From: Terriglobia bacterium
GTDB taxonomy: Bacteria > Acidobacteriota > Terriglobia > Terriglobales > Acidobacteriaceae
Assembly: GCA_020073165.1 (NCBI GenBank)
Contig: JAIQFP010000030.1
Location: 1-42,242 of the forward strand
Direction of reading: 5' to 3'
DNA: 42,242 nt
Shown here: piece by piece, positions 34,055 through 41,464 of the stretch
How positions within the stretch are numbered: position 1 is the first letter of the stretch
How the letters are laid out: each line of letters begins with the position of its first letter
Translations under genes and position numbers: made by a program
Notes under the pieces: model-generated
What the model saw: the letters and a program-made list of their open reading frames with translations, nothing else
Told to the model about the DNA's origin: nothing
Databases searched by the model: none

Positions 34055-34157
34055 AGCCCCGAATCCGCCCTCCAGACTTGGGATGGACGCGAAGCTCCGG
34101 GTCCTTCGGCTTCATTGTGCAACTGGGTGGTCTGGCGTACAGTAGGGCGGCCACGCA

Positions 34158-35009
34158 ATGAGACGAACGCAGGTCGGACCGACGGCTCGGGGCCCCGCTA
34201 TTCTGACTCGGGATTATCTGCAAGCTCATATTCCGATCTGGAGTGAAGCGCTGTTTGCGGTCGAGTTGGCTTTGTTGCACGTCGCGCCCGTCTACTACGG
34301 ACTCGGAACCCCGCACGGCGACGGTTCGGGAGTGGTTCTCATCCCCGGCTTCCTGTGTCCGGATCAATACCTGATCCCGTTGCAGAAATGGCTGGAGCGG
34401 ATCGGATACCGGGCCTTTTTGTCCGGCATCCGCTTCAACGCCGAGTGTCCCAACCTGCTGATTCAGCAACGCCTGACTGAGACCATCGAGAAGGCGCTGG
34501 CCCAGACCGGCCGCAGGATTCATCTGATCGGCCACAGTCTGGGAGGCATTATCGCGCGTTCGATCGCGGCGCAACGGGCAGCCGACATCGCTTCCGTGAT
34601 CACGCTGGGTTCGCCGTTCCGCGGGACCGCGGCACATGGCAGCATCCTGTTCGCCGCCGAAACCGTTCGCCGCCGTATCCTGAAGAAGCACGGCGATGGG
34701 GTGCTTCCCGGCTGTTACACCGGGCACTGCACCTGCGATTTTGTGGATTCCCTGCAGCGCAGCCTGCCGGCATCGGTGTGCGAAACCGCGGTATACACGC
34801 AGAATGACGGAGTGGTGGATTGGCGTTATTGCCGGACCGATGACCCGGAAGCGGATTTCCCGGTTTCAGGCACCCACATCGGACTGGCTTTTAATCCTAC
34901 GGTGTATAGCCTGATTGCCAGTCGTCTGGCCCTGGCCCAGTGCGGGCAGAAGAAGAGAGCGCCGAGGGCTCGCCGCATCCGGGCAGGCGTCAAATGCGCA
35001 ACCACCTGA
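34158..35009 (+). CDS. Alpha/beta hydrolase (lipase/esterase-like)
   Basis: The 283-residue protein has the lipase elbow GHSLGG with nucleophile S127, preceded by the oxyanion region VVLIPGFLCPDQYLIPLQKW. The likely acid and His are in NDGVVDWRY (near 218-224) and SGTHIGLAFNP (near 245). Cysteines in CYTGHCTCDF may form disulfides. It resembles PGAP1-like or triacylglycerol lipases that act on acyl esters. There is no signal peptide, so a cytoplasmic or membrane-surface role is likely. The substrate is unknown. Confidence 0.82.
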   Translation: MRRTQVGPTARGPAILTRDYLQAHIPIWSEALFAVELALLHVAPVYYGLGTPHGDGSGVVLIPGFLCPDQYLIPLQKWLERIGYRAFLSGIRFNAECPNLLIQQRLTETIEKALAQTGRRIHLIGHSLGGIIARSIAAQRAADIASVITLGSPFRGTAAHGSILFAAETVRRRILKKHGDGVLPGCYTGHCTCDFVDSLQRSLPASVCETAVYTQNDGVVDWRYCRTDDPEADFPVSGTHIGLAFNPTVYSLIASRLALAQCGQKKRAPRARRIRAGVKCATT

Positions 35010-35062
35010 ACGCGGTGGGGATTCCACGGTGAGCTTTGCCCAGCGGGAGACAGTGGGAAACC

Positions 35063-35091
35063 GCGAAAGGTGGGGCACCCGGCCACCCCCA
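35063..35091. repeat. Dispersed repeat copy (GGTGGGGCACCC family)
   Basis: CGCGAAAGGTGGGGCACCCG followed by GCCACCCCC lies in the gap after the lipase gene. Related copies occur at 33363-33409, 36204-36265, 37856-37880 and, inverted, 41488-41526. Confidence 0.7.
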
Positions 35092-35181
35092 TTTTCTCTT
35101 TGAACTGGACGCAATTGGGCCTAATATCACCCGGACGCCAGTGTCCATGCGGTCTTGAAACATCCGGGGGAGGATTCAACC

Positions 35182-36114
35182 ATGAAGAGTTCAACCGTTC
35201 TGTGGCTGTTTGTGTTGGTAATTTCGTTCGGCATCGCGTCGCCTGCAAGTTTCGCGCAAGGTTTGGGAGCGACGCAGCTCGGGGACGGTCTCCAAAAGTT
35301 CACCGACTGCCAGAATCAGGTCATCGGCCACCACGAACACCTCATCGCCGACCGCCTGCAAGCCAAGCTCGACAAGGCCACCGCGCTCACCCCCGAAGAG
35401 CGCGACATCTGGGTCGCTGAAATCCGCGCCCTTCGCCAAGTCACACCCTCGCGGCCGTTCAAGGCGCCCGACCCCAAGAACCCGCAGCGCTATTTTCTGG
35501 GACTGACCAACGACGAACAATCCGCCATCAATTCCATGCACAACCGTTACGTGCAGGAAGTGCATCTGGGCTGCGAGAAAAAATACGGTGGCATGACCCG
35601 CTACTCGCCCGGCTCCGACCAGTCCGGCCAGGCCCGCTACGAAAAGGAATTGAAGGACAATATTCAGACCGCCACCGACATCGCGACCATTCCCGTGGAA
35701 CCGATTCCCAGCCCCTATCCCAAGACCCGCGAGCAGATGCAGGAAGAGAGAAGGGCGAAGCAGCAGGCCACCCGGCAGGCCGCGGGCCAGACGATGAGCG
35801 CGTGCACCGAGGGCGCCAAGGGGCTGCGCTTGCGCATCATGGCCGACAAGATGCAACAAAGGCTCAACAGCAGCAAGGGACTCTCCGCCAAAGAACGCGC
35901 CGATTTCGAAGCTGACATAAAAGCGACCCGCGATGCCGCCGACAAGAAACTTGACTACGCCCCACCGGTAGATCCGAAGAATCCCAATCGGGCCATGATG
36001 CGCCTCACAGCGCAGGAGCAAATGGAAGTGACGACTGAATTCTCCAATCAGTACCTGGCGCAAATGCAGAACTGCGTTCACGCGTCGACCCCATCGCGGC
36101 CCCCGGCTCATTGA
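35182..36114 (+). CDS. Secreted protein with two internal repeats, unknown function
   Basis: The 310-residue protein has a signal peptide (about 1-25, ending ASFAQ). The rest is two copies of a domain of about 100 residues. Each copy shows a starting Cys, a helical Arg/Lys-rich segment, L(T/S)-x-x-ER, DPKNP-x-R, LT-x-x-EQ and a closing Cys. Copy 1 includes FTDCQNQ, LTPEERDIW, DPKNPQRYF and HLGCEKK. Copy 2 includes SACTEGA, LSAKERADF, DPKNPNRAM and QNCVHA. ATG 35182 follows GGGGGAGG by eight bases. I do not recognise the family. Confidence 0.75.
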   Translation: MKSSTVLWLFVLVISFGIASPASFAQGLGATQLGDGLQKFTDCQNQVIGHHEHLIADRLQAKLDKATALTPEERDIWVAEIRALRQVTPSRPFKAPDPKNPQRYFLGLTNDEQSAINSMHNRYVQEVHLGCEKKYGGMTRYSPGSDQSGQARYEKELKDNIQTATDIATIPVEPIPSPYPKTREQMQEERRAKQQATRQAAGQTMSACTEGAKGLRLRIMADKMQQRLNSSKGLSAKERADFEADIKATRDAADKKLDYAPPVDPKNPNRAMMRLTAQEQMEVTTEFSNQYLAQMQNCVHASTPSRPPAH

Positions 36115-36423
36115 GCATTTGATCAGCAGTCGGCTGCTTAATCCAACTGATAACCGGCAACCAGCAACTGCCAATTCCCCCGCACCCGGAATCAACACCT
36201 TTCGAAAACCGCGAAAGGTGGGGCACCCGGCACCCTTCAGAGTTGGGATGGACTCAAAGGCCGGGCCACCCGCCACCCTTTACTCGATCAGTAACACGTG
36301 GTAAGCTGCAGCCCCCATCGCGAGGTCCGCTTCCCAGGAATTTGGGCCCTAGCTCGAAAAACCAAATCTGATATTGAGCGGACGCGCGTTTCTACACGCC
36401 CACTCCGCCAGAAGGAGTTCGTA
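36115..36423. other. Repeat-containing intergenic region
   Basis: This 309-base stretch holds a copy of the dispersed repeat (CGCGAAAGGTGGGGCACCCG near 36210-36229), followed by a second partial copy around CCGGGCCACCCGCCACCC (36262-36279). The ribosome-binding site AAGGAG (36412-36417) of the next gene lies at its end. I see no other gene. Confidence 0.6.
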
Positions 36424-37281
36424 ATGAAGACCCAAATTGCTCGTCTTTGCCTGCTTGGAACCTTTTTGGTGGGCACTCTGCATGCTCAAGTTGAGGTTAA
36501 ACTGTTTGCCAACTCAAGCCAGCTCGCGGCTCACCCCATAGTTGTGGTTGAGGTACCACCGGACTGGTCAATCATAGGGGGTGGAGCAACGACAAGCTGG
36601 AATGGAACGGACGCAGGAAATTTGCTGGTTTCAGCGTATCCCCTGGACAAGCATCACTGGATCGCTTCAAGTAAGGATCATTCTGTTTCCTCCCCTGCTG
36701 TACTTACCGCCTACGCTGTAGCAATTAAGAATCCGCAGCAGGGACTCTATGATGTGAAAATATTCGCCCAGCAAAGTTCCGGGCAAACAGATAATCCTAG
36801 CGCCTCTGTGCTCGTAGATAGCAGCTATCAGATGACCGGAGGTGGTGCAAAGGCAGAAACTGGGGGACCGGGGCTGCTTCTAACCGCGTCATATCCTTCA
36901 AGTGACAGGGGCTGGACTACGATCGCAAAAGCGCACAGCGTTTCGTCGCCAGGCAGCGTGACTGCCTATGCAATCGGCGTCAAATCGAAAACATCAAAAC
37001 CATTTCCTCCCGTAACGCGATTCCCGAGTGCGACATCAGGCGGCAGTCTATCTCCGGAAAGCACAATCAATGTCAGTTCGGGATTTATTCTGACCGGAGG
37101 CGGTGCAGAGGTGCAGTACTCAGACACCGTCGGATGCCTCTTGACTGAAACAAGTCCGAAGGGGAATTTCGGCTGGTCCGGAAAGGCCAAAGCGCACAGC
37201 GTGCCCAGCACCTGCACGATGACGGTGTTTTCCTTGGGGCTCAATAGCAGCAATGGAGCGGATGCGAAAGTTGTCTTTTGA
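36424..37281 (+). CDS. Secreted protein with three tandem repeats, unknown function
   Basis: The 285-residue protein has a signal peptide (about 1-20, LLGTFLVGTLHAQ). Three repeats of about 80-90 residues follow. Each contains GGGA, a Leu-rich strand, a GW or HW, then (D/K)A-HS-(V)-S/PS and TAY/TVF. Examples are DHSVSSPAVLTAYAVAIK, AHSVSSPGSVTAYAIGVK and AHSVPSTCTMTVFSLGLN. The pattern suggests beta-rich modules exposed outside the cell. ATG 36424 has AAGGAG six bases upstream; the frame extends to 36298 without support. Composition is more AT-rich than average, in keeping with recent acquisition. I do not recognise the family. Confidence 0.72.
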   Translation: MKTQIARLCLLGTFLVGTLHAQVEVKLFANSSQLAAHPIVVVEVPPDWSIIGGGATTSWNGTDAGNLLVSAYPLDKHHWIASSKDHSVSSPAVLTAYAVAIKNPQQGLYDVKIFAQQSSGQTDNPSASVLVDSSYQMTGGGAKAETGGPGLLLTASYPSSDRGWTTIAKAHSVSSPGSVTAYAIGVKSKTSKPFPPVTRFPSATSGGSLSPESTINVSSGFILTGGGAEVQYSDTVGCLLTETSPKGNFGWSGKAKAHSVPSTCTMTVFSLGLNSSNGADAKVVF

Positions 37282-37330
37282 AGTGAAATTGGTGAAACAG
37301 TGGGGGATCCACGTCTCCACATAGTCGTGA

Positions 37331-37353
37331 AAGGGTCGGAGGTCCCGACCCTT
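37331..37353. terminator. Hairpin after the three-repeat protein gene
   Basis: AAGGGTCGG (37331-37339), loop AGGTC and CCGACCCTT (37345-37353) form a strong 9-base stem 49 bases after the stop. It is followed by CTCTGG rather than a U-tract, so termination is plausible but not certain. Confidence 0.55.
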
Positions 37354-37430
37354 CTCTGGTTGAAGCATGGGATTCCGCACAAGTCGGGGACAGGGATCAA
37401 CGGCGAACCTTGTCCCCATGCCTGCTCTGC

Positions 37431-37540
37431 CTATGTCTTCGCCCCGATCCGTTTCTCCCAAGCTTCCTGCTCCGCCTTTCCCCAATGTCCCACCACAATG
37501 ACGTAAGCCATCGGGGTCGGCGAGGCTGATTTCGCCGCTG
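37431..37540 (-). pseudogene. Glyoxalase (VOC)-like 3' fragment, frameshifted
   Basis: On the minus strand one frame reads FPSGEISLADPDG and, after an extra T near 37505, another continues YVIVVGHWGKAEQEAWEKR to a TAG at 37431-37433. DPDGY-V-x-x-V is typical of the last strand of vicinal-oxygen-chelate (glyoxalase/bleomycin-resistance) proteins. Only the C-terminal part remains and the frame is broken. The tandem GGAAATCGAG repeats lie just upstream of it. Confidence 0.45.
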
Positions 37541-37571
37541 GGAAATCGAGGGAAATCGAGGGGAAATCGAG
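37541..37571. repeat. Triplicated GGAAATCGAG
   Basis: Three consecutive copies of GGAAATCGAG (the third with one extra G) fill 37541-37571, directly before a 17-base inverted repeat. Confidence 0.8.
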
Positions 37572-37624
37572 GGACAGACGGGACGTTCCCTAAGGTGAAG
37601 AACAGAAAACGTCCCGTCTGTCCC
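37571..37624. repeat. 17-bp perfect inverted repeat
   Basis: GGGACAGACGGGACGTT (37571-37587) pairs exactly with AACGTCCCGTCTGTCCC (37608-37624) around a 20-base loop. Part of the right arm with its flank recurs at 37879-37901 as CAGAAAACGTCCCGGCTGTC, so this is a dispersed element rather than a simple terminator. Confidence 0.8.
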
Positions 37625-37633
37625 CACATTTCC

Positions 37634-37797
37634 CAGGTCTCCCGCCTGGAACAGCGCAGCGATCTTCTGCTTTCCACGCTGCGCAGCTACGTAGAGCCAT
37701 GGGAGGCCGCCTCACCCTGGTCGCAGAATTTCCTGACCAGAAACCCGTAGTGCTATCTGGGATTGCCGCCCTCGACACGGGCGTGCGCCTGACGTGA
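37634..37797 (+). pseudogene. HigA-like XRE regulator 3' fragment, frameshifted
   Basis: The plus strand reads QVSRLEQRSDLLLSTLRSYV then, after loss of one base at about 37697, MGGRLTLVAEFPDQKPVVL and ends at TGA 37795-37797. This strongly resembles the end of the helix-turn-helix and the tail of HigA-type XRE antitoxin regulators (LEQRSDLLLSTL, YVEAMGG, LVAEFPD). The 5' half and any toxin partner are missing. The 17-base inverted repeat lies where the missing half should be. Confidence 0.6.
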
Positions 37798-37938
37798 CCG
37801 CGCGATCTTTACGAGTGGGAGAGCGGGTTGCCGCTGCCTGCACCCGCCTTTCGAGGACCGCCAAAGATGGGGCACCGGCAGAAAACGTCCCGGCTGTCCC
37901 CCAGTTTCCTCCGTTCTGGGAAGTAAGCCGTGTTAAAT
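37798..37938. other. Intergenic region after the HigA-like fragment
   Basis: This gap before the end of thyX contains two repeat pieces: a degenerate GGTGGGGCACC-type copy (37856-37880) and a second copy of the AAAACGTCCCGGCTGTCCCC motif (37882-37901). I see no gene. Confidence 0.55.
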
Positions 37939-38727
37939 TTAGCCCTCTGCACAGCCTCCAGTTAACTTTGAAACCAACATAGGGGTCTTATCTCCAAGGT
38001 CCTTCAAGCTGAAATCCGAGAATAAGGCCGGGGCATCATCTCGCACCACCTTAAACATCGCGGCTGCCGCCTCCCGCATTTCCACGTCTCCTGGTATCGA
38101 ACCTCTGACCTTAAAAAAATGGCGCAGCGCGCGTGCGTTCGCCGTAATAATGATCTTGGTCTCCGTGGCGTTGGGCAGCACGCTGCGTGCAGCTGAGCGG
38201 ACTGCTCTTTTTAGCTCCTTCTTCTGCAGGTCTAGTCCTGAACCATTCTGAGAACCGTCCAACGTCTCTAAGATAATTGTGTACGCCTGTTTCGATGTTT
38301 CCACTGCTTCTCGCCAGGCTTCTAACGCACGAGGAGATGTCCTGAGATGGGCAGGCTCGACGAATTCGGCCTCAGTTTCCTCGTGGTATTGCTGGGATAG
38401 TTGGCTGAAGGAAAATCCTATTCGGTGCCGTACCAGTTGGTGCGTGAAGGCACGGCTTACTCCAATCAGGAGGAATGTCCAGCTCACATGCTCCAATACG
38501 CTTTCATGGCCCTGGGCAATGAGGTTTTGGATGTACTCCTCGTTTGACCGAGGCGACTGTTTCTCTCCGAAAGACATGTAGCAAATACGACCGGCAGCTT
38601 CAACGAGCTCCTCTGGTCCAGTCGCGCCGGGAGTTCGGTTCCAAACCTTCTGTTCAAGCCGTAGAAAATCAAGAAACGCCTGTGCATAGAATTGAGGTGA
38701 ACTGAGTTTAAAGACACGGAGGCTCAT
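37939..38727 (-). CDS. thyX: ThyX-type flavin-dependent thymidylate synthase, altered signature
   Basis: ThyX methylates dUMP to dTMP using FAD, NADPH and methylene-tetrahydrofolate. The 262 residues show HESVLEHVSWTFLLIGVSRA, then the signature region RHRIGFSFSQLSQQY (100-114), and a C-terminal VLPNATETKIIITANARALR followed by HFFKVR. The C-terminal part closely resembles actinobacterial ThyX. The signature normally reads RHR-x7-S-x-R-Y; here eight residues separate RHR from Ser and the Arg is Gln (Q113). The enzyme might have changed activity or specificity. Its start overlaps the stop of the preceding gene (ATGA). The DNA is more AT-rich than the housekeeping genes. Confidence 0.87.
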   Translation of the reverse strand: MSLRVFKLSSPQFYAQAFLDFLRLEQKVWNRTPGATGPEELVEAAGRICYMSFGEKQSPRSNEEYIQNLIAQGHESVLEHVSWTFLLIGVSRAFTHQLVRHRIGFSFSQLSQQYHEETEAEFVEPAHLRTSPRALEAWREAVETSKQAYTIILETLDGSQNGSGLDLQKKELKRAVRSAARSVLPNATETKIIITANARALRHFFKVRGSIPGDVEMREAAAAMFKVVRDDAPALFSDFSLKDLGDKTPMLVSKLTGGCAEG

Positions 38728-39530
38728 GGTTTTCCCGCTTTGCCTTTGCTCGGTTTGGGACCTCCCACATTTGCCGAGCCAGCACCGGACTGCTTGTCTT
38801 CTAAGACTTTTACTTTCTCCTGCAAGACCTTTACCCTCTCCTCCAAAACTGCCTCATTGCGTTTTGCCTCCTCGACACCTCCTAGATAGTATGGAACAAA
38901 CTGAGCGCTGAGTGCTACGACGGCCGCCAGCAGGCCAGCCACTAGCGTCGCTCTTTTCACTTCGTGCTTCGCGATTTTCATCGCCCGGTTCGAAACGTTC
39001 AGGAAATCCCGAGAGAGCCTGTTCACATCCGGGTCGGGCGCGACGCCCGTATTCCGCTTGCGATAGTCTGCCACAACCGCACCGTCGAGCTTAAAGAAGA
39101 GCACAGTTACAATGGCATCCCGCAATCTCAGTTCAATGGAGTCTCGGCTCATATTGATTACTGTGAGGTGCATTGGTCCGTCATAACCAGGGTCGACGTG
39201 ACCGGGATTGGTCATGAGCAGGCCCTGCACCGAAACGTGAGATGGAGGAAACCCAATAGCCGCAAGGTCGGAGCTCATGTGTAGCTGCTCGATGGTCGTC
39301 ACAATCGCCGTTTGTCCAGGTAGAAGCTGGTAGCGTCCGCTGGTCACGTCGTCCGGCTTCTGTGAAGGACGATCCGCCGGCAGTGAAATCTTGCCGATGT
39401 GAAGATCTATTGATGACGGCTGCACGGGGGATGCAGCATCAGTCCACTGTTTCGGAGCTGGGGTGCCTTTGATTACCGGGTCTGTCCCCTCGTAAAGATC
39501 TTTGAGTTCGTCATCCTTCAATAGTTTCAT
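38724..39530 (-). CDS. dCTP deaminase/dUTPase-fold protein with C-terminal membrane helix and coiled coil
   Basis: Residues 1-160 show the trimeric dCTP deaminase/dUTPase fold: QPSSIDLHIGKI (37-48), LLPGQTAIVTTIEQLHM, and GLLMTNPGHVDPGYDGPMHL (103-122). A membrane helix (about 194-216) and a charged coiled coil (about 219-246) follow, so the domain would be tethered to the membrane. In E. coli Dcd the deamination Glu lies in LEFYN; the matching place here reads LTVIN, and the Ser and Arg of SSLARLG also seem absent. The VDPGYDG loop keeps the Asp used by dUTPases. It may therefore be a dUTPase-like enzyme or a nucleotide sensor. AAGGAAGGA precedes the ATG. Confidence 0.8.
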   Translation of the reverse strand: MKLLKDDELKDLYEGTDPVIKGTPAPKQWTDAASPVQPSSIDLHIGKISLPADRPSQKPDDVTSGRYQLLPGQTAIVTTIEQLHMSSDLAAIGFPPSHVSVQGLLMTNPGHVDPGYDGPMHLTVINMSRDSIELRLRDAIVTVLFFKLDGAVVADYRKRNTGVAPDPDVNRLSRDFLNVSNRAMKIAKHEVKRATLVAGLLAAVVALSAQFVPYYLGGVEEAKRNEAVLEERVKVLQEKVKVLEDKQSGAGSANVGGPKPSKGKAGKP

Positions 39531-39541
39531 TTCGTCCTTCC

Positions 39542-40519
39542 TTACGAATGTTTTCGTGTTCGCTTGGCAAGTTTCTTGACCCGTCGTGTTTGGAACTTAT
39601 CCAGCCATTCTTGCGTCGGGCGCGTGGCGGGAACGAAAATGAGAGGACAAGAGCATACTGGCTTTGCGCAGATCGGGCAACGGAAGGACTGGAGGCTGTC
39701 CGAGCCATAACGTCGCCAGATTATTCCAGATAGAGTAATTGGCTTTACGTCATTGAGCTTCTGTACAAGCGCATAAAGCCACGAAAAAACATCAGCAATT
39801 TGTCCTTCCAGCCTAGCTTGACGCCAATTTGGTTCTCCAGATCGGAAGTCCTTTTTCGTGAAGGAGTACATGCGAACAAGGGCGTCCGAAACCTCTCCGA
39901 GTTCCTCCAGGAAATGAAGTCCGATGTCCGTCGAAGAGAGCTGCCTAATATTTTCTCCGAAGATAGTCGCAAACATGGATTGCCAATCATCGATGGTCTT
40001 GGGCTTGAGACTTCGATTCGCTTCGCTAAATCTAAGCAAATCCTCGGAGTCCATGCGCTTAGTGTTTTTGTCTCTGCAGTCGGGGCCATGTGCTGAACAA
40101 TCGCACGGCGCGAGGAGACCAGCGCCTCTCAATGCCGCTTCACTTCCCTTGATTCGACGGGCATAGCACAAGTGGCATACCCCCGGATAGCGGTGCCAGA
40201 CCAAGTCAGAGCAGCTGCTTGCGATTCGGACTAGCGCTTCAACCGGAGTCTCGTCCTGCGTCTTGCGTTTGCCTGGCCTGCCCGATAACCTGTGCACCGC
40301 AGTGAACAACCACAGGGCAAAGTCTGCGATTTCCGTGGATAGCTTGTCTGCGGCTACTCCTTTTCTGATTCTCTCCGCAACCGCTGCACCGTGGTGGAGC
40401 GTATGACACCACACGTCCCAAAGGGACCTGTTCTTGTCGTGGGCGCCGTAGATCGTGGGAACAACACGAGCATAGTCGTCCAGTTGCATACGGGCCGCAA
40501 TAGCATGCGAATAGTTCAA
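39542..40519 (-). CDS. Tandem MazG-like protein with duplicated Cys motifs
   Basis: The 325-residue protein is built from two similar halves. Half 1 (33-150) has a MazG-like helix pair (LHHGAAVAERI, TEIADFALWLF), then WHRYPG, CHLC and CDC. Half 2 (195-290) has HFLEELGEVSDALV, EGQIADVFSWLYALV, then WRRYG, CPIC and CSC. MazG-type all-alpha NTP pyrophosphatases use an ExxE plus ExxD site. Half 1 keeps ExxD (E63, D66) but lost ExxE; half 2 keeps ExxE (E206, E209) but has QxxD. The cysteine clusters probably bind zinc. The start is TTG 40519 or ATG 40489. The next gene begins 11 bases after its stop. Confidence 0.72.
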   Translation of the reverse strand: MNYSHAIAARMQLDDYARVVPTIYGAHDKNRSLWDVWCHTLHHGAAVAERIRKGVAADKLSTEIADFALWLFTAVHRLSGRPGKRKTQDETPVEALVRIASSCSDLVWHRYPGVCHLCYARRIKGSEAALRGAGLLAPCDCSAHGPDCRDKNTKRMDSEDLLRFSEANRSLKPKTIDDWQSMFATIFGENIRQLSSTDIGLHFLEELGEVSDALVRMYSFTKKDFRSGEPNWRQARLEGQIADVFSWLYALVQKLNDVKPITLSGIIWRRYGSDSLQSFRCPICAKPVCSCPLIFVPATRPTQEWLDKFQTRRVKKLAKRTRKHS

Positions 40520-40702
40520 GGTGCCTCATCTCATGCTGCAAAGTTTGGCGGGCGCAGAAGAGGACGACTGCACCGAAAACGCGATATTGACACGCTCACT
40601 GCTATTCTCTCTAATGAACGCACAGGCTGCAATGTTTCTGATCGGCGGATTTAGGTGATGAACGTTGGCATCATCGAGATCTCCGAGACTGGTGGTTTGT
40701 AG
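40520..40702. other. Divergent control region of the nucleotide cassette
   Basis: This 183-base region separates the minus-strand three-gene operon from the plus-strand Nudix-WGR gene. It contains the strong plus-strand promoter listed separately. I could not find a clear minus-strand promoter or an operator palindrome. The Nudix leader of about 80 bases shows no obvious RNA structure. Confidence 0.5.
40587..40615 (+). promoter_or_regulatory. Promoter of the Nudix-WGR gene
   Basis: A perfect TTGACA (40587-40592), a 17-base spacer and TCTAAT (40610-40615, five of six consensus bases) form one of the best sigma-70-like promoters in the window. Transcription would start near 40622, about 80 bases before the GTG start. 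Confidence 0.7.
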
Positions 40703-41464
40703 GTGAAAGAGGAGAAAGCACGAAAGAGTGTCACCGTTGTCTCGGCTTGCATCATGCGTCCGGGCGGGAAGGAAATCCTCCTTTCAATGAGAAAGGCCCC
40801 CGGTGTTCCAGGCTTGCATGGCAAGTGGGAGCTCCCCGGAGGGAAGATTGAATTTGGAGAGACACCCGAGCAGGCAATCGTTCGGGAAATTCGGGAGGAA
40901 CTCGGGATAACTGTTCTCCCGAGGAGGATGCTACCTTACCTGCACACAAACCTCTGGGAATACGAACATGCCTTCCAGCATGTTGTATTGGCTTGTTACG
41001 AGTGCGATCTCCAAGAAGATCTCCTTTTTGGTCCGCCCCAAGATGCACAGTGGTTCAGGACAGGCGATATTGATTTCGATCTCACTCTACCCGGCACCAG
41101 GGAGTTCGTAACGTTGGCAGCTGCTCAGGAGGAGTTCGAACAGGTCTGCATTCAGTTCGAACACATCGATGAATCCACGAAAACCTGCAATCGGTTTACG
41201 GTCGCGACCCAACCGACGCTGTATTCACACTACGGCCTAGTCAAGTATTGGGGCCGGACTGGCGAGTGGGCGAAGATGAAGATCGAAGAGTTCGCATCCC
41301 CAAGGGAACTCGACGAGCGGATATTCGAGACGGCGAAGCGACGCTTGGCACGTGGCTATCATGTCAGAGCTCTCCAAGGGCCGCGCCACTATAAGGTTCT
41401 ATTGCAGATCGTCGAATTGGCTAAACAGAAGCATGAGTATTGTCCAGCTCCGACCATTTCGTGA
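40703..41464 (+). CDS. Nudix hydrolase fused to a WGR domain
   Basis: Residues 8-135 are a MutT-like Nudix domain with a complete Nudix box (46-68): G-x5-E-x7-REIREELGI. MutT-like enzymes cleave nucleoside di- or triphosphates such as damaged dNTPs or CTP. Residues about 150-222 fit a WGR domain: HYGLVKYWGRTGEWAKMKIE, then FETAKRRLARGYHV. WGR domains bind nucleic acid, for example DNA breaks in PARP proteins. The fusion suggests nucleotide hydrolysis coupled to nucleic-acid sensing. GTG 40703 is the first start after an in-frame TAG. It is divergent from the MazG/DCD/ThyX operon. Confidence 0.8.
   Translation: MKEEKARKSVTVVSACIMRPGGKEILLSMRKAPGVPGLHGKWELPGGKIEFGETPEQAIVREIREELGITVLPRRMLPYLHTNLWEYEHAFQHVVLACYECDLQEDLLFGPPQDAQWFRTGDIDFDLTLPGTREFVTLAAAQEEFEQVCIQFEHIDESTKTCNRFTVATQPTLYSHYGLVKYWGRTGEWAKMKIEEFASPRELDERIFETAKRRLARGYHVRALQGPRHYKVLLQIVELAKQKHEYCPAPTIS

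What the first reader, a model, noticed from the sequence alone, without database searches (positions are those of the whole stretch)
37939..41464. Candidate nucleotide-pool-editing system: tandem MazG-like, membrane-tethered DCD/DUT-fold protein, variant ThyX and divergent Nudix-WGR
Seen: three minus-strand genes packed with an 11-base gap and an ATGA overlap, plus a divergent fourth gene with a strong promoter. All are from families that hydrolyse, deaminate, methylate or sense (deoxy)nucleotides. They are more AT-rich than neighbours and lie between pseudogene debris and an IS481-like element. Known: dCTP deaminase and dGTPase systems defend bacteria by depleting dNTPs; MazG and Nudix enzymes cleave NTPs. 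Inference: a mobile system that remodels dCTP/dUTP/dTTP pools during phage infection, with the WGR domain as a nucleic-acid sensor and the membrane protein as an anchor. Alternatives are a salvage/housecleaning module or synthesis of modified nucleotides. I do not know this four-gene combination as a described system.
Basis: partly seen in the sequence, partly recalled or inferred. Interest (0 to 1): 0.88.

Follow-up and report, generated by a model that had tools for sequence, protein, structure and literature searches.

The report
Mobile thymidylate-enzyme and membrane-sensor gene pair
A soil-type bacterium carries a small mobile cluster of nucleotide genes; two of them also sit side by side at the edge of an E. 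coli prophage, in a slot that holds a known anti-phage gene in a related prophage, so the pair is probably a virus-defence module that can be tested in the laboratory.

Summary
The observation largely holds: a tandem MazG-like gene with Cys clusters, a DCD/DUT-fold gene with a membrane helix ("DCD-TM") and ThyX are packed on the minus strand, with a divergent Nudix-WGR gene. The MazG match is weak and the "strong promoter" was not confirmed. The four-gene set was found nowhere else, but its core recurs: DCD-TM + ThyX directly follows the integrase in four P2-like provirus contigs and one of 5426 E. coli genomes. In E. coli it lies between integrase and attachment site; in a sibling prophage that slot holds an anti-phage dCTP deaminase. 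Cassette ThyX proteins form one clade (100/98); all 7 replace the dUMP-contacting arginine by glutamine, while 18 other rows keep it. All 22 DCD-TM proteins lack the dCTP-deaminase glutamate; 21 have a predicted membrane helix. On plasmids, 8 of 10 DCD-TM loci also hold thymidylate-synthase, 5-hmdU-kinase-like, MazG_C or UDG genes. The host has other ThyX-like and Dcd genes. Best reading: a mobile, probably anti-phage module in which DCD-TM is a membrane-anchored nucleotide sensor/effector and variant ThyX sets its ligand. Pool depletion by deamination is unlikely. No function was measured.

The parts
37939..38727 (-). ThyX-family protein, 262 aa, with variant motif RHRIGFSFSQLSQQY (Arg to Gln, one extra residue after RHR)
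   Evidence: Thy1 5.8e-53; TIGR02170 157.8 bits, cut-off 87.9; clade with prophage-cassette ThyX, 100/98
38724..39530 (-). DCD-TM: degenerate dCTP deaminase/dUTPase-fold domain (about residues 34-150), transmembrane helix, C-terminal long helix
   Evidence: DCD 8.4e-12; Foldseek to dCTP deaminase-dUTPase 1.3e-9 on a modest model; catalytic Glu absent, hydropathy maximum 2.12 at residue 194
38895..38951 (-). predicted transmembrane segment of DCD-TM (residues 194-212)
   Evidence: hydropathy 2.12 over 19 residues
38790..38876 (-). C-terminal long helix of DCD-TM (residues 219-247), possibly coiled coil
   Evidence: helix 219-247 in the model, low to moderate confidence
39542..40519 (-). tandem MazG-like protein with two Cys clusters (CxxC..CxC and CPxCxKxVCxC); the tandem nature is read by eye
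   Evidence: PF03819 E 0.12, below cut-off; Cys and HFLEExGE conserved in a 27%-identical relative
40520..40702 (.). divergent intergenic region
   Evidence: between the ORFs; no sigma-70 consensus match
40703..41464 (+). Nudix hydrolase with intact Nudix box and C-terminal WGR domain
   Evidence: NUDIX 2.2e-18, WGR 4.4e-5; box GGKIEFGETPEQAIVREIREELGI read
35884..39200 (.). block identical (one mismatch, at 37032) to a second species of the same genus, against a backbone of about 85-88%; the other contig ends here

Best explanation
The cluster is a horizontally moving conflict module, most likely anti-phage. Its conserved core is the DCD-TM + ThyX pair. DCD-TM has kept the dUTPase/dCTP-deaminase fold, lost the deaminase glutamate and the usual motif II, and gained a membrane helix; I propose that it binds a pyrimidine deoxynucleotide (dTTP- or dUTP-like, or a modified form) and acts at the membrane when phage replication shifts that pool, stopping the infected cell. 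Variant ThyX would make, consume or be displaced by that ligand and so hold or release DCD-TM. In this genome the MazG-like and Nudix-WGR proteins would be accessory nucleotide hydrolases. Shown by sequence: mobility, pairing, clade, motif losses, association. Inferred: defence, ligand binding, membrane action, the ThyX-DCD-TM link, the accessory role.
For: Two-gene cassette directly after int in L131, L132, L133, L135 and E. coli TUM12355; in E. coli it lies between int and a second exact copy of the ssrA 3' end. Slot in siblings: an annotated anti-phage dCTP deaminase between int and that copy in L176, and at the same place in L173 where no copy was found (PADLOC dCTPase 4.2e-145 for L173). 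ThyX clade 100/98 with Gln in 7 of 7 and Arg in 18 of 18 others. The equivalent Arg contacts dUMP (Mtb Arg107; passage of PMC6514825), and R90A slows a dUMP-triggered step in T. maritima (passage of PMC8316439). DCD-TM: Glu absent 22 of 22, RS dipeptide absent 22 of 22 (L078 has KSS), TM 21 of 22. Partner genes in 8 of 10 plasmid loci; some lie beside genes annotated as Shedu or caspase/pYEATS. Practically identical block in another species. Precedent: Clover CloA senses dTTP (abstract and one section of PMC12265719).
Against: No function was measured. The pair is rare: 1 of 5426 E. coli genomes and four IMG/VR contigs. The window DCD-TM is only 24-27% identical to the cassette ones. ThyX keeps Ser, Tyr and RHR, so it may simply be an active thymidylate synthase. 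The motif-III aspartate is kept in 21 of 22 DCD-TM, so hydrolysis is not excluded. Of nine hypothetical genes scanned from the same slot, none has a Pfam match and one a weak PADLOC match, so the slot is not proven to be a defence slot. Two of 10 plasmid loci and L036 and L040 show no partner. The identical block could be an assembly chimera.
Confidence: 0.45

Rival explanations
1. Nucleotide-modification module: the ThyX variant and partners make a modified pyrimidine nucleotide, put into DNA or used to poison phage DNA; DCD-TM excludes or gates it.
For: DCD-TM co-occurs with HMUDK_hel, ThyA-like, dTMP kinase, MazG_C, UDG and PurA/PurZ-like genes; change in the ThyX substrate site. DefensePredictor reports validated systems with thymidylate synthase and 5hmdU-kinase domains (sections read).
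Against: The window holds none of the HMUDK, kinase, ThyA-like or UDG relatives searched for; the prophage form has only two genes.
Confidence: 0.2
2. Classical pool depletion: MazG, Nudix and DCD hydrolyse or deaminate dNTPs during infection.
For: Intact Nudix box; MazG-like motif HFLEELGE; an anti-phage dCTP deaminase occupies the same slot in a sibling prophage.
Against: Deaminase Glu absent in 22 of 22 DCD-TM and RS absent in 22 (L078 has KSS); the second half of the MazG signature reads QIAD in the window where the relative reads ELAD (my reading); the prophage form lacks MazG and Nudix.
Confidence: 0.15
3. Metabolic salvage or housecleaning cargo that supplies dTMP to host or prophage.
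For: ThyX keeps most conserved residues; the host lacks ThyA.
Against: A long ORF with two Thy1 matches is in most of 25 relatives and a canonical Dcd is present elsewhere in the genome; E. coli already has ThyA (established knowledge); DCD-TM has lost catalytic motifs; only 2 of 25 relatives carry the strong Thy1 match.
Confidence: 0.15
4. Chance neighbours: the MazG-like and Nudix-WGR genes are unrelated passengers beside a real DCD-TM + ThyX pair (compatible with the best explanation).
For: Neither was seen with the pair elsewhere.
Against: The MazG-like gene lies 11 bp upstream on the same strand, and its only relative sits beside a radical-SAM gene and a gene with a dCMP-deaminase domain.
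Confidence: 0.3

Closest known systems
DefensePredictor systems with thymidylate synthase, dNMP kinase, 5hmdU kinase and NMAD domains (PMC13092281)
   Same: Thymidylate-type enzymes in validated phage defence; L033 holds ThyA-like, dTMP kinase, HMUDK_hel and DCD-TM genes together
   Different: The text read names no ThyX and no membrane DCD; the window lacks kinase and HMUDK relatives. Figures and supplements were not seen
Anti-phage dCTP deaminase (PADLOC dCTPase)
   Same: Pyrimidine deoxynucleotide theme; occupies the same prophage slot in L176 and the same place after int in L173
   Different: That protein has a zinc cytidine/deoxycytidylate deaminase domain (L173), a different fold; the window proteins have no such PADLOC hit
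Clover (CloA dGTPase / CloB; PMC12265719)
   Same: Proposed principle: a defence protein reads a thymidine nucleotide (dTTP) raised by phage
   Different: No HD dNTPase or nucleotidyltransferase among the window hits; DCD-TM is a predicted membrane protein
Canonical ThyX
   Same: Fold family, RHR, Ser and Tyr of the signature
   Different: dUMP-contacting Arg is Gln and one residue is inserted; extra to the lineage's own ThyX-like protein

Membership tests
dCTP deaminase (Dcd, TIGR02274) | catalytic Glu (E138 of E. coli Dcd) | tested here: not met
   Thr at that column in the window; absent in 22 of 22 DCD-TM; 54.4 bits, cut-off 92.8. Role of E138 recalled
trimeric dUTPase | motif II RS(G/S) and curated scores | tested here: not met
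   window reads GFPPSHVS; RS absent in 22 of 22, KSS in L078; PF00692 26.5 over 22 but TIGR00576 21.2 under 102.55. Motif numbering recalled
DCD/dUTPase superfamily fold | sequence and fold match | tested here: met
   PF22769 45.9 over 27; Foldseek 1.3e-9, model pLDDT 53.8
ThyX | curated score | tested here: met
   TIGR02170 157.8 over 87.9
ThyX | RHRxxSxxxxSxR signature (recalled) | tested here: not met
   RHRIGFSFSQLSQQY: insertion and Arg to Gln
MazG | PF03819 over cut-off | tested here: not met
   13.1 bits, cut-off 22; model too poor for fold search
Nudix hydrolase | Nudix box GX5EX7REUXEEXGU (recalled) | tested here: met
   box read; PF00293 67 over 21.1
anti-phage dCTP deaminase (PADLOC dCTPase) | zinc cytidine/deoxycytidylate deaminase domain | tested here: not met
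   no such hit for the four window proteins in Pfam or PADLOC
TS/5hmdU-kinase defence system (DefensePredictor) | HMUDK-type and dNMP-kinase genes present | tested here: not met
   no phmmer match within 9 kb of the window DCD-TM
anti-phage defence system | protects cells from phage | not testable with these tools
   needs a plaque assay

The most novel reading that the evidence does not exclude
DCD-TM founds a family of membrane-anchored nucleotide-sensing effectors: a dead dUTPase/dCTP-deaminase barrel gated by thymidine- or uridine-type deoxynucleotides, coupled to interchangeable thymidylate enzymes (ThyX here and in P2-like prophages; ThyA-like with 5-hmdU-kinase-type, MazG_C and UDG genes elsewhere).
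Probability: 0.3. Interest if true: 0.82.

Novelty: new variant of a known kind. Interest (0 to 1): 0.62.

Why it matters
It turns a one-genome observation into a two-gene unit that occurs naturally in an E. coli prophage, so its role can be tested in a standard strain. If right, it would show that a housekeeping nucleotide-enzyme fold was turned into a membrane sensor for phage-altered nucleotide pools, and it would join several scattered nucleotide-type loci (ThyX, ThyA-like, MazG_C, UDG, 5-hmdU-kinase-like) through one shared component.

Tried and rejected
PADLOC hit PDC-S07 of the Nudix protein was dropped as evidence: three Nudix proteins from other genomes score higher, 120-125 against 73 bits. 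Pairing of the MazG-like protein with the others: one relative only, in Candidatus Aminicenantes. Nothing for the MazG-like protein in viral contigs, plasmids or phages; no viral-contig relative of the Nudix-WGR protein. The window DCD-TM itself had no plasmid match; the plasmid loci come from its relative in L033. In the phage records the prophage DCD-TM gave only three partial matches. The part of the cassette from 39201 on was not found in the sister-species assembly. AlphaFold model of the MazG-like protein too poor to search (pLDDT 41). Literature: no paper held all of dCTP deaminase, transmembrane, anti-phage and coiled-coil; one held both flavin-dependent thymidylate synthase and anti-phage defense, a phage description by its abstract. 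These searches cover the held open library only, and most results were seen as listings.

Limits of the counts; 33 control loci put in, four (L115, L124, L130, L154) gave no row, leaving 29; one control (L111, a 606-aa ORF) exceeds the hydropathy threshold, and L109 lacks both Glu and RS; queries come from the window, L030, L033, L077 and L107 themselves, and the prophage loci were found through ThyX, so the total of 18 of 22 (0 of 13 controls) is partly circular; the plasmid figure, 8 of 10, is cleaner, and there only the UDG match of L077 is a query meeting itself. The 13 sibling prophages were picked by me from the 40 rows listed of 196 matching records. ThyX tree: 25 rows, 22 different.
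Full report
WHAT IS THERE. The window ends in a compact cluster: MazG-like, DCD-TM and ThyX genes on the minus strand (11-bp gap, 4-bp overlap) and a divergent Nudix-WGR gene. Pfam supports ThyX (5.8e-53), the DCD/dUTPase fold (8.4e-12; 6e-6), Nudix (2.2e-18) and WGR (4.4e-5); the MazG match is under its cut-off (E 0.12). The region is lower in GC than most of the window. No sigma-70 consensus promoter was seen between the divergent genes. The window is a whole contig (42242 bases) of a 4.6-Mb genome. Its phylum holds a Candidatus Aminicenantes record, which I infer from the equal contig length (199416) of G296 and PLMN01000003.1, so the host is probably an acidobacterium in the GTDB sense (recalled).

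NOT THE ONLY GENES OF THEIR KIND. The genome has another ORF with two Thy1 matches (531 aa) and a canonical DCD match of 8.9e-38 on another contig. Of 25 relatives including itself, 24 have a Thy1 match (G298 has none), nearly all as two matches in one long ORF, and none has ThyA. The strong Thy1 match (6.6e-53 and 6.9e-53) occurs only in this genome and in one of the same genus. That the long ORF is the housekeeping enzyme is inferred.

MOBILITY. In the same-genus genome G297, the long backbone stretches match at 85-88% (500-bp bins from 76 to 91%), 34068-35883 at about 90-94%, and 35884-39200 is identical but for one mismatch, up to the end of that contig; ThyX has no codon difference. This fits recent transfer or recombination; an assembly chimera is not excluded. 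The rest of the cassette was not found in G297.

THE CONSERVED CORE. A scan of viral contigs with the window ThyX returned 14 loci; the five closest (53-57%) are L131-L135. In L131, L132, L133 and L135, ThyX follows a DCD-TM gene directly, and DCD-TM follows an integrase gene in what I read from the ORFs as a P2-like provirus; L134 begins at ThyX, so its neighbour is unseen. E. coli TUM12355 has the same pair, 1 of 5426 genomes, annotated as thyX and 'dCTP deaminase domain-containing protein', after the integrase of a prophage at ssrA. The prophage is flanked by two exact copies of the 24-base ssrA 3' end; the second lies 185 bases beyond ThyX, so the pair is inside the element, between int and the attachment end. 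The ThyX of L131 is identical to that of E. coli.

THE SLOT IN SIBLINGS. Of 196 E. coli genomes with a related integrase I looked at 13. In 11 a copy of the ssrA 3' end lies beyond int: one slot (L176) holds an annotated 'anti-phage dCTP deaminase', nine hold one or two hypothetical genes, one (L182) is empty. In L173 the same annotated deaminase follows int, and in L183 a hypothetical gene does, but no copy of the end was found. The L173 deaminase matches PADLOC dCTPase at 4.2e-145. Of nine hypotheticals scanned, one has a weak PADLOC '2TM effector' match (8e-5) and none a Pfam match. E. coli P2-like phages are known to carry defence hotspots (abstract in the listing; passages of PMC9122126); the passages I read do not name this slot in E. 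coli.

THYX. In a maximum-likelihood tree of 25 rows (22 different), the window ThyX groups with the cassette ThyX and L134 (100/98). All 7 have SQQY where the 18 other rows have SxRY (L140 and L160 read from their printed sequences, L141 identical to L140). In the closest solved ThyX, from M. tuberculosis by the names and residue numbers I recall, the motif is RHR-HFSYSQLSQRY. That Arg (Arg107) is listed among the dUMP-contacting residues (passage, PMC6514825), and T. maritima R90A slows a dUMP-triggered step (passage, PMC8316439). Ser and Tyr of the motif are kept.

DCD-TM. The window protein's modest model (pLDDT 53.8) matches dCTP deaminase and dUTPase structures (1.3e-9). Across 22 DCD-TM proteins the deaminase Glu is absent in 22, the RS dipeptide of motif II in 22 (L078 has KSS), and the motif-III aspartate is kept in 21 (L107 has Glu); a hydrophobic 19-residue segment (mean at least 1.6) is present in 21 (L074: 1.45). 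Of 29 control Dcd/Dut proteins, one long ORF exceeds that threshold, and all but L109 keep the Glu or the RS motif (motif states read from its printed columns). I read DCD-TM as a nucleotide-binding barrel that is no longer a deaminase; whether it hydrolyses anything is open.

ASSOCIATIONS. DCD-TM relatives lie with MazG_C and HMUDK_hel genes in L030 and with dTMP-kinase, HMUDK_hel and ThyA-like genes in L033, with PurA/PurZ-like genes in L031 and L161, and on plasmids with HTH, ImmA/IrrE, C1 peptidase, UDG, MazG_C and HMUDK genes. Eight of 10 plasmid loci have at least one pyrimidine or modification partner (not L078 and L080); overall 18 of 22 against 0 of 13 control loci, with the circularity noted under Tried and rejected. 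DefensePredictor reports validated systems that contain thymidylate synthase and 5-hmdU kinase domains and predicts MazG, MazG-C and dUTPase domains as defensive (sections 5, 7, 8 and 15 read).

ACCESSORY GENES. The MazG-like protein has conserved Cys clusters and HFLEExGE in one relative at 27% identity, which sits beside a radical-SAM gene and a gene with a dCMP-deaminase domain. No second protein with the WGR half was found among the loci then held. Their membership of the module rests on position alone.

MECHANISM. Clover shows that a defence protein can read dTTP raised by phage enzymes (abstract and one section), and dCTP deaminases bind dTTP (PDB titles list dTTP complexes; its regulatory role is recalled). 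By analogy I propose DCD-TM as a membrane-held nucleotide sensor/effector with variant ThyX controlling its ligand. I put about 0.7 on a mobile conflict module and 0.45 on the full statement.

NOVELTY. I saw no paper on a ThyX + membrane DCD pair in the open library searched (mostly listings). The theme, nucleotide-centred defence, is known; hence a new variant of a known kind.

Noticed in passing
L030:6801-8437; L072, L074, L075, L077, L079: Near DCD-TM lie an M78 (ImmA/IrrE-type) metallopeptidase protein, in L030 with a chagasin-type I42 cysteine-protease-inhibitor domain, and a papain-like C1 peptidase: a possible protease-inhibitor pair in a nucleotide-type island.
   Followed up: partly
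L031:7585-10117; L161 (L107): PurA/PurZ-like adenylosuccinate synthetase gene directly before a DCD-TM gene in two genomes of the host's family; in L031 also a kinase-like P-loop gene.
   Followed up: no
L040:8152-9093: A DCD-TM gene inside what looks by eye like a prophage structural region, between terminase-like and portal-like genes.
   Followed up: no
L171-L183, gene after int: The int-att slot of these P2-like prophages holds varied genes; nine hypotheticals scanned have no Pfam match and could be untested defence genes.
   Followed up: partly
L047:8666-10261 and relatives: ORF of about 530 aa with two Thy1 domains in most of 25 relatives, none of which has ThyA; by eye the first domain of the host's copy lacks the RHR triplet, so how dTMP is made there is worth a look.
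   Followed up: partly
L070 / L046:7355-14869: Candidatus Aminicenantes locus with radical-SAM, MazG-like, dCMP-deaminase plus sugar-binding-domain and methyltransferase-like genes and, by eye, a Vsr-like gene.
   Followed up: no
window 35884-39200: Abrupt switch from about 94% to practically 100% identity with a sister species: recent transfer or assembly chimera.
   Followed up: partly
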